DNA from: Taeniopygia guttata
Lineage: Eukaryota; Chordata; Aves; Passeriformes; Estrildidae
DNA: 64,000 bases
Reading direction: 5' to 3'
Assembly (NCBI RefSeq): GCF_048771995.1
Contig: NC_133024.1
Coordinates: forward strand, 28,598,001 to 28,662,000
In this document: positions 49,401-52,400 of the stretch, piece after piece
Position numbering within the stretch: position 1 is the stretch's first letter
Layout of the letters: each line of letters opens with the position of its first letter
Program-made: the position numbers and the translations under genes
The notes under the pieces: generated by a model
The model's database searches: none
Told to the model about the DNA's origin: nothing
The model's input: only the letters and a program-made list of their open reading frames with translations

Positions 49401-52400
49401 TCTCCTCCAAGTGGGATCATGGAAAGTTGGGAAGGGACCCCTGGAGTTGTCTCCCTGATCAAAGAGCAATTAGTTCTGTTAATTCCAAGGCTAGGTCAGA
49501 TTCTTCTCCAGGTGAGTCTTGCACATTTCCAAGGATGGAATTTCCCTGGACACTCTGAATACCTATGCAAGTGCTGGACCACCTTTGGGAGAGAAGAACA
49601 TAATTTTCTTTAACAGGGTAAAAATTTCCCTCATTGAAAGTTGTGCCTATTGCCTCTTGCAAAGTTTGTTTGTTTGTTTGTTTGTTTGTTTGTTTTTACT
49701 TCTGTTCTCTACTTGATCATTACTGACTTTCTGGATAGCCCTTGGTACTCTTCAGGTGGAACAACGTTCATGGCTGGCAGAGCTGCATCATTACAAATCA
49801 GCACTTAAATAGGTGTCAGTTTTCCTGTAACCTTCCCTTCCTTTCACTGCCACCAGTTACATGTGAAAAGAAAGAGCTCGTGTTGCTGAAGTGGAAAGGT
49901 GTCTGTGGTGAACCTTTCATGAGAGCAGGAGGTGTCACAGCAAGAGATCAAAGAAACTGTACATTAAATATCACATATAGGAAGACACTTGCCTCCAAGA
50001 GGAGCCTTGAAGCAACATCCGACTCCAACTGCGCAAGCGGGCACCAGGAGGTCGAGCTGCCTATGCACATTCTGGAACAGGGAGTGCAGCCAGAGACGGG
50101 CATGCTGGGGTTAGAGGGAGCAAAGCCACGGGGTTAGGACCCAGAACAATGAAAATAAGCAACAGCCAGCAGCACAGTCAGCCATGGCTATTACAAATAG
50201 CAGGCTCTACACACTTTAGTGCAATCTTTAGTACTGTCAGCTGGTGTCCAGCAGTGACATCTGCTCCTTGTGCACAGACAGGATCTACTGAAGGAGAGCA
50301 GCACCTCCAGTTGTATGACACAGTCATTTTCTGCTAAGAGCCTGCACATAAAGGAGTTCCTACATTTATCTATATGTGCAGTTAATAGATTTTTTTATAC
50401 AACCAGTCAATATGATGATCAGCCTGCAGAGGCTGTTCGGCGATAGCAAAAGCATACAGACAGTGTCAGTGTCTATAATTAGCAATGCTGTATAAATTTG
50501 GCTTAAAGACAAATTGATCTTTGTCTGCAGCTACGTTTTATACAGTCAATGATCACAGTGCAAAGGCATCAATCACAAGATTGAAAACTTGTCAAACACA
50601 TACTCCTAACCAGTCTCTGTGTAACTTCTGGGCAACATTGGTGGTCCTGCATAGTTATTTGGACTGCATGCCTGGCCTTGCACTACTTTAGTTCAGCCTG
50701 TGTTTTGCTGCTCTATAGCAGTACAGTAAACATCAATCTATGTGTTTCCTCTGTGTTCCATGGCCTGCCCATTCTATCCTGGGTGTCTCAGGAGCTCAGC
50801 CTGTGGAAGAACTCTGTGCAGAGATATGTGCCTTACCTCATACACCCCACAGAAGATCGACATGAACTTGCTGAGTACCACAGCACAGATACTGGCAATA
50901 TGCACAAAAGGACCCTGTAAGAGAAGAGGAGAAAATCAGAGAGGGTTGCCCTCTGGTTACTGACAACCATTTAGCCACTGCAGGCCTTATAACTTCTCTG
51001 CCATCTCAGCCAGTAATAGAACCATTGAGGTTGGAAATGACCTCTGAGATCATTGAATCAAACCTTTATTGCAGCATCACTGTGTTCACTGTTAAAACAT
51101 GTCCCCAAGTGCCACAGCCACACACCTTTTGAACTCTTCCAGGGATACTGATTCCACCACTTGCCTTTTCAATGCCTGACCACCATCTCATTGAAGAAAT
51201 TTTTCCTACTATCCAATCTAAACCTTGCCTGGTGCAACTTGAAGCCATTTCCTCTTGTCTTGTCACTGGTCACCTGGGAGAATTGACAGGTTCCCACCTG
51301 GCTACAACCTCCTGTCATGGAGTTACAGAGTGTGAGAAGGTCTCCCCTGAGCCTTTTTTCCTCCAGATAAGGCCCTCAGCCACTCCTCATAAGATTTGTG
51401 CCTTAGACGCTCCAATCTTCCTCAGTTCTACTATCTCCATTTAATTTTTTTCCCTCTCAAAGACTACCTGACCAGAGTTTTGTGTTTCCTATATCATGTC
51501 TTTGAAAGTGGAAGGTAAATGGCCAGTGAAAGATAGGTGCTGCTGGAAAGAGCAGAGCTTTGAGAAGAGGAATGGTGGTGAAAGAAAGAAAAGTTGTCTT
51601 TTACAGACAACTGCCACCTTCCAGACCCTGGTCACCACTGCACACAGAATCAGCAATATTTACCTCTTTCCCCACAGGCATGCCACTTCCCAGCCCAGCT
51701 GTGAGGGCCACAACTTTGGCCACAAAAGCTTTGAGAGTGAGATACTCCTTGAGGACCACTCCCCTCATAATGGTCTTGAGCTCTGGGATTCCAGACCCTG
51801 AAAACAACAGCAGAGCCGGGGATGAACAAAACCCGCGGGTGAACGGAACAAGAAAAACGAGACAGACAGAAACAGATGCTGCCCTGCCTTCTGCCCTCAC
51901 CGACAGCCTGTGGAGAGACGAAGTGGCAGAAACTGGCCGCAAACAGAATGAGGCCGAGTGGGACCGCCACCCACACGGCGTACTGCAGGGGGACATTGGG
52001 GTGCAGCGCTCCGTAGATCCACTTGTAGGCTGCAACACACAAACACAGAACCCGTCAGTAACCACAACTGCTCCAACAGGCTGGTAGACATCAGACAATC
52101 ACACGCTTGCTAAACGTGCCCATGCTAAATCTCCTTCTGAAATGGTGCCCTCATGCTCCTTTTCTAAGACAAGCCTTGTTTTGAGTGCGAGCTCCCCAAT
52201 AAAGCAGGCGTTCTTCAGGGATGGATAGAAGACACTATTGATACCTGTGCATAAGTGTGGCATAAAAAGAGGTCCTCACATGCAGCTGTGAGGACAAATC
52301 ACTGTGTCCTCATTTGGCAGTCTGAGGGTCTTGTGTGGGTTCTGAAGGACAATAAAGTGGTCCACCAATGGCTCCTTCATAAAAACCTAGTTTAAAAGTT

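What the first reader, a model, noticed from the sequence alone, without database searches (positions are those of the whole stretch)
49993..50071. A paralogous exon 7a of CLCN1 preserved at protein level
Two 79-nt exons, 49993-50071 and 47256-47334, share length, phase (0 in, 1 out), donor type and the core CAVGVGCCF plus PLG. Across the nine core codons, eight differ and all differences are third-position and silent. That pattern means an old tandem exon duplication kept by selection on the protein. Exon 7a swaps the start of helix G ([12 protein letters not shown] for [12 protein letters not shown]) and puts Lys-Ala where exon 7 has Gly-Thr (human 280-281), next to the cysteine linked to common gating. 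Mammalian exon 7a is known mainly as a mis-spliced exon in myotonic dystrophy. Here it looks like a genuine alternative module that could give a ClC-1 with different gating.
Basis: partly seen in the sequence, partly recalled or inferred. Interest (0 to 1): 0.92.

Follow-up and report, generated by a model that had tools for sequence, protein, structure and literature searches.

The report
Ancient coding twin of CLCN1 exon 7

Summary
On the minus strand of a songbird CLCN1 gene, 50071-49993 (exon 7a) and 47334-47256 (exon 7) are paralogous 79-nt exons with the same phase and GC donor. Eight of nine core codons differ, all silently; 0 of 200,000 shuffles match their similarity. Splicing 6-7a-8 keeps the 772-aa assembled frame open; 7a plus 7, or neither, gives a premature stop. 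It is no bird peculiarity: of 238 top-ranked database proteins, 117 carry a clean 7a-type module in the exon 7 slot, 49 tetrapod and 68 teleost. 7a resembles the 79-nt CLCN2 and CLCNK exons, so 7a keeps the ancestral type and exon 7 is derived. Ala270 and Ala281 are constant in those 117; the 68 teleost copies have Thr for Cys277, the slow-gate cysteine. I read 7a as an ancient in-frame alternative module, in mammalian muscle also an NMD switch. No RNA or electrophysiology was run; database forms are gene models. Both exons being 79 nt, size-based RT-PCR cannot tell 6-7a-8 from 6-7-8.

The parts
49993..50071 (-). CLCN1 exon 7a, 79 nt, phase 0 to 1: [26 protein letters not shown](G)
   Evidence: 100% identical module in a database ClC-1 of Zonotrichia leucophrys (P0003)
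49987..49992 (-). GC-type donor gcaagt of exon 7a
50072..50104 (-). possible in-frame 33-nt upstream extension of exon 7a from an alternative AG acceptor ([11 protein letters not shown])
   Evidence: sequence; the same 11 residues are in the annotated Geothlypis trichas protein P0028 and a similar stretch in turkey P0070
47256..47334 (-). CLCN1 exon 7, 79 nt, phase 0 to 1: [26 protein letters not shown](G)
   Evidence: 25 of 27 residues as in human ClC-1 259-285
47250..47255 (-). GC-type donor gcaagt of exon 7
50837..50914 (-). CLCN1 exon 6 ([26 protein letters not shown]), upstream splice partner of 7a and 7
44477..44602 (-). CLCN1 exon 8, downstream splice partner; holds the premature stop if 7a and 7 are both included
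49992..50171 (-). 180-nt stretch over the 7a acceptor with 7 YGCY (MBNL-type) motifs; 0.7% of 180-nt windows of the gene have as many
   Evidence: no excess hairpin stability
25005..60621 (-). CLCN1 gene: 19 exons counting 7a and 7, from 60621 to 30921, joined without a stop; later exons to the stop at 25005 seen but not joined, one short exon not located. The start codon is uncertain: the Zonotrichia protein begins 8 codons after the ATG at 60621

Best explanation
Exon 7a is a genuine, ancient coding alternative to exon 7, made by tandem duplication inside CLCN1 before teleosts and tetrapods split. It encodes the linker after helix F, helix G and the start of helix H (helix names recalled from CLC structures) in the ancestral, ClC-2-like form; exon 7 is the derived form. 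Splicing one of the two gives full-length ClC-1; splicing both or neither shifts the frame and should trigger NMD. The 7a channel most likely differs in slow (common) gating, because the swapped stretch holds Cys277 and, in teleosts, replaces it with Thr. Shown: paralogy, frame logic, cross-species conservation of the peptide. Inferred: use in RNA, translation, gating change.
For: Paralogy beyond chance; frame logic in the assembled gene. Of the 238 proteins listed by two searches, 117 have a clean 27-residue 7a module in the exon 7 slot, 49 tetrapod and 68 teleost; no mixed form hides behind the sorting rule, since all 64 exon 7 modules have both Gly270 and Thr281. An ibis, a boa and an agamid lizard share the same 27 residues. 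Ala270, Val273, Gly274, Val275, Ala281 and Gly284-285 are identical in 117 of 117, and change concentrates in the F-G linker and at 269, 280 and 283, the pattern of a protein fold. Proteins of one species can differ mainly at this slot: Lates 785/788 and Mastacembelus 744/745 identical outside it, 14 and 13 of 27 inside. The 7a-swapped stretch scores like exon 7 on the CLC profile PF00654: 72.5 bits (ibis type), 71.2 (exon 7), 68.5 (this bird). CLCN2 and CLCNK exons in this genome have the same 79-nt form, the same boundaries and 7a-like residues. [quoted passage not shown]
Against: No RNA was examined; database isoforms are gene predictions and some (for example 7a joined to 7 through extra letters: P0005, P0043, P0052) look forced. 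Papers on mouse describe 7a as spliced together with exon 7, giving a premature stop and loss of function (passages of PMC10082032, PMC10760957, PMC12458930). 7a varies more than its neighbours: mean pairwise identity 0.83 against 0.96 (exon 6) and 0.98 (exon 8) over 25 tetrapods. Some copies look worn: turkey Pro282Leu, mangabey Pro282His, colugo several changes. This bird's own 7a scores lowest of the three on PF00654. A splicing-level constraint cannot be separated from a protein-level one without DNA from other species.
Confidence: 0.72

Rival explanations
1. Exon 7a is only a poison exon. Inclusion together with exon 7 shifts the frame, so MBNL-controlled inclusion turns ClC-1 down in immature muscle; the peptide itself is never used.
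For: 7a plus 7 gives a stop in exon 8 here. In mouse, fetal muscle mainly includes 7a and MBNL later excludes it (PMC10760957); a ddPCR assay targets the 7a-7 junction (PMC10082032). YGCY motifs are dense at the 7a acceptor here.
Against: It does not explain open 26-codon frames that keep CLC-fold residues in the 117 clean copies from teleosts to mammals, nor annotated 6-7a-8 forms in many species. A hairpin is reported at the mammalian intron 6-exon 7a junction (PMC4176163); here the junction folds no better than shuffles, z -0.28.
Confidence: 0.2
2. Exon 7a is an ancestral coding exon now decaying: under selection in fish, reptiles and most birds, but a relic or mere regulatory exon in some lineages, this songbird perhaps among them (Lys280, Pro269). 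It overlaps with the best explanation rather than excluding it.
For: 7a evolves faster than neighbouring exons. Among the fetched proteins charged residues at 280 occur in birds only: Lys in three songbirds, Glu in Pezoporus, Arg in Cuculus. Turkey, mangabey and colugo copies carry changes at conserved sites.
Against: This bird's copy is fully open with intact splice sites, is identical to that of Zonotrichia, and Pro269 also occurs in cats, hamster and a hawk.
Confidence: 0.3
3. Chance similarity, assembly artefact or a stray copy of another CLC gene.
For: 7a is closer to the CLCN2 exon (16 of 26) than to exon 7 (14 of 26).
Against: 0 of 200,000 shuffles; one genomic match; the same slot and form in many species; it shares the GC donor with exon 7, while the CLCN2 and CLCNK exons have GT donors.
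Confidence: 0.01

Closest known systems
CLCN1/Clcn1 exon 7a of mouse and human (myotonic dystrophy)
   Same: Same gene and intron; the first mouse inclusion product is 79 bp longer than the exclusion product (345 to 424 bp, PMC10082032); mammalian 7a peptides ([26 protein letters not shown] in lemur) are plainly related.
   Different: Described in the passages I read as an alternative or cryptic, frameshifting exon included along with exon 7, not as a coding replacement for it.
Tandem duplicated exon substitution events / mutually exclusive exons of vertebrate ion channels
   Same: Homologous neighbouring exons, equal length, frame allows one only, ancient (a passage of PMC9741552 says over 90% of annotated human events have orthologues in bony fish).
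   Different: The terms CLCN and chloride channel have no match in the main text of four surveys (supplements not seen); mouse papers report inclusion together with exon 7; the 7a-7 intron is 2,658 nt here, so steric exclusion is unlikely.
CLCN2 and CLCNK exon coding helix G
   Same: Same 79-nt, phase 0-1 exon with N as first codon and the F.AP signature.
   Different: GT donor; no second copy beside them among the 13 genome matches, though no dedicated search was made.
ClC-1 mutant C277S and myotonia mutants C277R/Y
   Same: Same residue; the 68 teleost 7a modules carry Thr277.
   Different: Tetrapod 7a keeps Cys277 in 49 of 49; I saw no report of the gating of a 7a channel in the listings of my ten paper searches.

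Membership tests
Tandem-duplicated, mutually exclusive exon pair | two homologous neighbouring exons in one gene | tested here: met
Tandem-duplicated, mutually exclusive exon pair | either exon alone keeps the frame; both or neither breaks it | tested here: met
Tandem-duplicated, mutually exclusive exon pair | both peptides conserved across species | tested here: met
   117 clean 7a modules; exon 7 nearly constant: 5 variants among 64 clean modules
Tandem-duplicated, mutually exclusive exon pair | exclusive use in RNA | not testable with these tools
   no RNA-seq; papers on mouse report 7a joined to 7, so mammalian muscle would not meet it strictly
Poison (NMD) exon | cassette inclusion creates a premature stop | tested here: met
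   7a plus 7 stops in exon 8
Poison (NMD) exon | no coding role of the exon itself | tested here: inconclusive
   peptide-level conservation argues against; no DNA alignment or proteomics
Poison (NMD) exon | MBNL control as in mammals | tested here: inconclusive
   YGCY enrichment at the acceptor, no hairpin excess
CLC chloride channel helix G module (PF00654) | scores on the family profile in place of exon 7 | tested here: met
   68.5 and 72.5 bits with 7a, 71.2 with 7, cut-off 24.8

The most novel reading that the evidence does not exclude
Bony vertebrates, mammals included, make a second full-length ClC-1 (6-7a-8) with a ClC-2-like helix G and altered slow gating; in teleosts it lacks the slow-gate cysteine (Thr277) and would be a naturally slow-gate-crippled channel. 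It has been missed because both exons are 79 nt, so RT-PCR by size and junction assays for 6-7 or 7a-7 cannot see it. The 'toxic' exon of myotonic dystrophy would then be half of an ancient switch.
Probability: 0.35. Interest if true: 0.88.

Novelty: new member of a known kind. Interest (0 to 1): 0.68.

Why it matters
CLCN1 exon 7a is a treatment target in myotonic dystrophy models (antisense skipping, genomic deletion in mice) and is treated as a cryptic exon. If it is a conserved coding module, it should have a normal job in some tissue or stage, its removal is not obviously neutral, and ClC-1 has a second gating form that can be tested directly in existing long-read data and in oocytes.

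Tried and rejected
Chance or artefact: rejected. A further exon 7-like copy in the window: none above score 23. 7a proteins as a separate gene: one search compared 21 pairs in 11 sets. Outside the slot the best same-species identity is Mastacembelus 744/745, Lates 785/788, Dicentrarchus 665/669, Anabas 692/705, Sander 728/747, Nothobranchius 566/583, Oreochromis 779/809, Cuculus 778/811, Gouania 689/728, Astatotilapia 602/679; two Zonotrichia species give 972/973. In the slot 11 to 15 of 27 are identical. A separate gene is unlikely for the first, not settled for the last few, where teleost gene duplicates or model errors are possible. Conserved hairpin at the 7a acceptor: no excess. Exon tree: 27 columns are too few; only the exon 7 group is firm (100/99); whether 7a is one clade is unresolved. 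Steric exclusion: intron of 2,658 nt. Shark or lobe-finned fish copies: a newt query listed none, but its rows filled up with ClC-2. Structure prediction: the queue was full; the one accepted job failed, so no structure is reported. Kino 2009 and Chen 2013 are not held; Mankodi 2002 and Charlet 2002 were not looked up.

Full report
WHAT IS THERE. The minus strand of the window carries the CLCN1 gene of a songbird. Its assembled protein is closest among the fetched proteins to that of Anomalospiza imberbis (763 of 772 identical; Viduidae). Nineteen exons counting both 7a and 7 (60621 to 30921) were assembled; all acceptors are AG, 17 donors are GT and two, those of exons 7a and 7, are GC. Further exons down to the stop at 25005 are visible but were not joined, and one short exon was not located, so the assembled frame of 772 aa is not the full protein. 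The Zonotrichia protein begins 8 codons after the first ATG used here.

THE PAIR. Exon 7a (50071-49993) and exon 7 (47334-47256) are both 79 nt, enter in phase 0 and leave in phase 1, and end GGAG|gcaagt. Nine core codons hold eight silent third-base differences. The similarity is far beyond chance. With 6-7-8 or 6-7a-8 the frame stays open; with 7a and 7 together a stop falls in exon 8, with neither in exon 9.

OTHER SPECIES. Three protein searches listed their best 120 rows each, of 3,571, 204 and 1,464 matches, 305 different proteins in all. The 238 from the first two were sorted by pattern: 117 with a clean 27-residue 7a-type module, 64 with exon 7, 27 ClC-2, 22 odd, 8 unplaced. The rows were chosen by likeness to 7a queries, so 117 of 238 is not a frequency. 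All 64 exon 7 modules have both Gly270 and Thr281, so the sorting rule hides no mixed form. By my hand tally of the names the 117 come from about 43 tetrapod and 44 teleost species: songbirds, raptors, waterfowl, alligator, turtles, lizards, snakes, newt, frog, marsupials, carnivores, rodents, deer, whales, primates; perch-like fishes, carps, salmon, zebrafish, electric eel, bonytongue. Of the 8 unplaced, 7 also show 7a residues and 1 is ClC-2b. The odd 22 include models that join 7a to 7, some through extra letters, models that read on past the donor (GGKW in cuckoo, rifleman, bustard, hornbill and two turtles, which hints at GC donors there too), and truncated ones. These are database gene models; their RNA support was not seen. 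Of the 67 further proteins only one was looked at (P0240, Bos mutus, with 7a).

WHICH COPY IS OLD-STYLE. The matching exons of CLCN2 (C11:17694018-17693940) and CLCNK (C23:5694368-5694446) in the same genome are 79 nt, begin with Asn and read [26 protein letters not shown] and NKFKQHEMLVAAQAVGVATVFGAPIS, with GT donors (gene names by similarity and inference). 7a shares their alanines at 270 and 281; exon 7 alone has Gly270 and Thr281. Mean identity to ClC-2 over 27 sites is 17.6 for tetrapod 7a, 16.0 for fish 7a and 13.7 for exon 7 (18 chosen sequences). On a small tree only exon 7 forms a firm group, on a long branch (100/99, length 1.0); the rest is unresolved. So exon 7 is most likely the derived copy. 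The GC donor shared by 7a and 7 alone fits a duplication within CLCN1. Since both types occur in teleosts and tetrapods, both existed in their common ancestor (dating by inference).

SELECTION. Over 25 tetrapod proteins 7a shows mean pairwise identity 0.83 (minimum 0.63), against 0.96 for exon 6, 0.98 for exon 8, 0.96 for part of exon 9 and 0.92 for part of exon 5: clearly constrained, but less than its neighbours. Change sits in the F-G linker and at 269, 280 and 283; the helix G core and the AP-GG motif hardly move. That is what a protein fold predicts, and not what a splicing signal alone would predict (inference). Codon-level tests need DNA from other species, which the collections do not hold.

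MECHANISM. Shown: one-of-two frame logic. Known from papers (passages): in mouse, fetal muscle mainly includes 7a, MBNL later excludes it, and its inclusion causes frameshift and loss of channel (PMC10760957, PMC10082032, PMC12458930). Here the 7a acceptor has 7 YGCY motifs in 180 nt; 0.7% of windows of the gene have as many, and the same stretch at exon 7 has 5 (7%). Inferred: where exon 7 is skipped instead, 6-7a-8 gives full-length ClC-1 with a ClC-2-like helix G. Cys277 lies in the module; [quoted passage not shown] The 68 teleost modules have Thr277; the 49 tetrapod modules keep Cys277. So a gating change is the likeliest effect, strongest in fish.

WHY IT COULD BE MISSED. The mouse RT-PCR of PMC10082032 gives one 345-bp exclusion band and three inclusion bands (424, about 550, about 850 bp). 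A 6-7a-8 product should also be 345 bp, mouse exon 7 being taken as 79 nt like here. The ddPCR assay in that paper targets the 7a-7 and 6-7 junctions and would not see it either. This is my inference from the passages read.

NOVELTY. Exon 7a itself is well known, and the 7a protein forms already lie in public databases. In the passages on exon 7a that I read (PMC7564762, PMC5840707, PMC12458930 with one section, PMC4176163, PMC10082032, PMC10760957) I saw no statement that 7a is a paralogue of exon 7 or a coding alternative. PMC4410605 has no match for exon 7a; PMC7026490 and PMC6483157 were searched for gating terms only. Four surveys of duplicated or exclusive exons do not match CLCN in the main text; their supplements were not open to me, and Kino 2009, a key paper on 7a, is not held. 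The ten literature searches cover open-licence papers only, so earlier notice cannot be excluded.

Noticed in passing
50072-50104 (minus strand): An in-frame alternative AG acceptor 33 nt upstream of exon 7a would add [11 protein letters not shown]; the same residues are in an annotated Geothlypis protein and similar ones in turkey.
   Followed up: partly
47250-47255 and 49987-49992 (minus strand): Only exons 7 and 7a of the 19 assembled CLCN1 exons use GC donors; the CLCN2 and CLCNK counterparts use GT.
   Followed up: partly
database proteins P0003, P0004, P0028, P0012, P0032: Position 280 of 7a carries a charged residue in five fetched bird proteins (Lys in three songbirds, Glu in Pezoporus, Arg in Cuculus) and Gly or Ala in the other clean 7a modules.
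   Followed up: no
database proteins P0038, P0063, P0070: 7a copies of colugo, mangabey and turkey carry changes at otherwise conserved sites, hinting at decay in some lineages.
   Followed up: no
45400-46650 (minus strand), intron between exons 7 and 8: Broken reading frames resembling a zinc-finger hAT-type transposase (name recalled, not searched) with a two-copy 23-bp tandem repeat at 46359-46404.
   Followed up: no
49664-49695: Perfect (GTTT)8 microsatellite between exons 7a and 7.
   Followed up: no
9470-10417 (plus strand): A 315-aa frame whose end looks like FAM131B, a neighbour of CLCN1 (both recalled, not searched).
   Followed up: no
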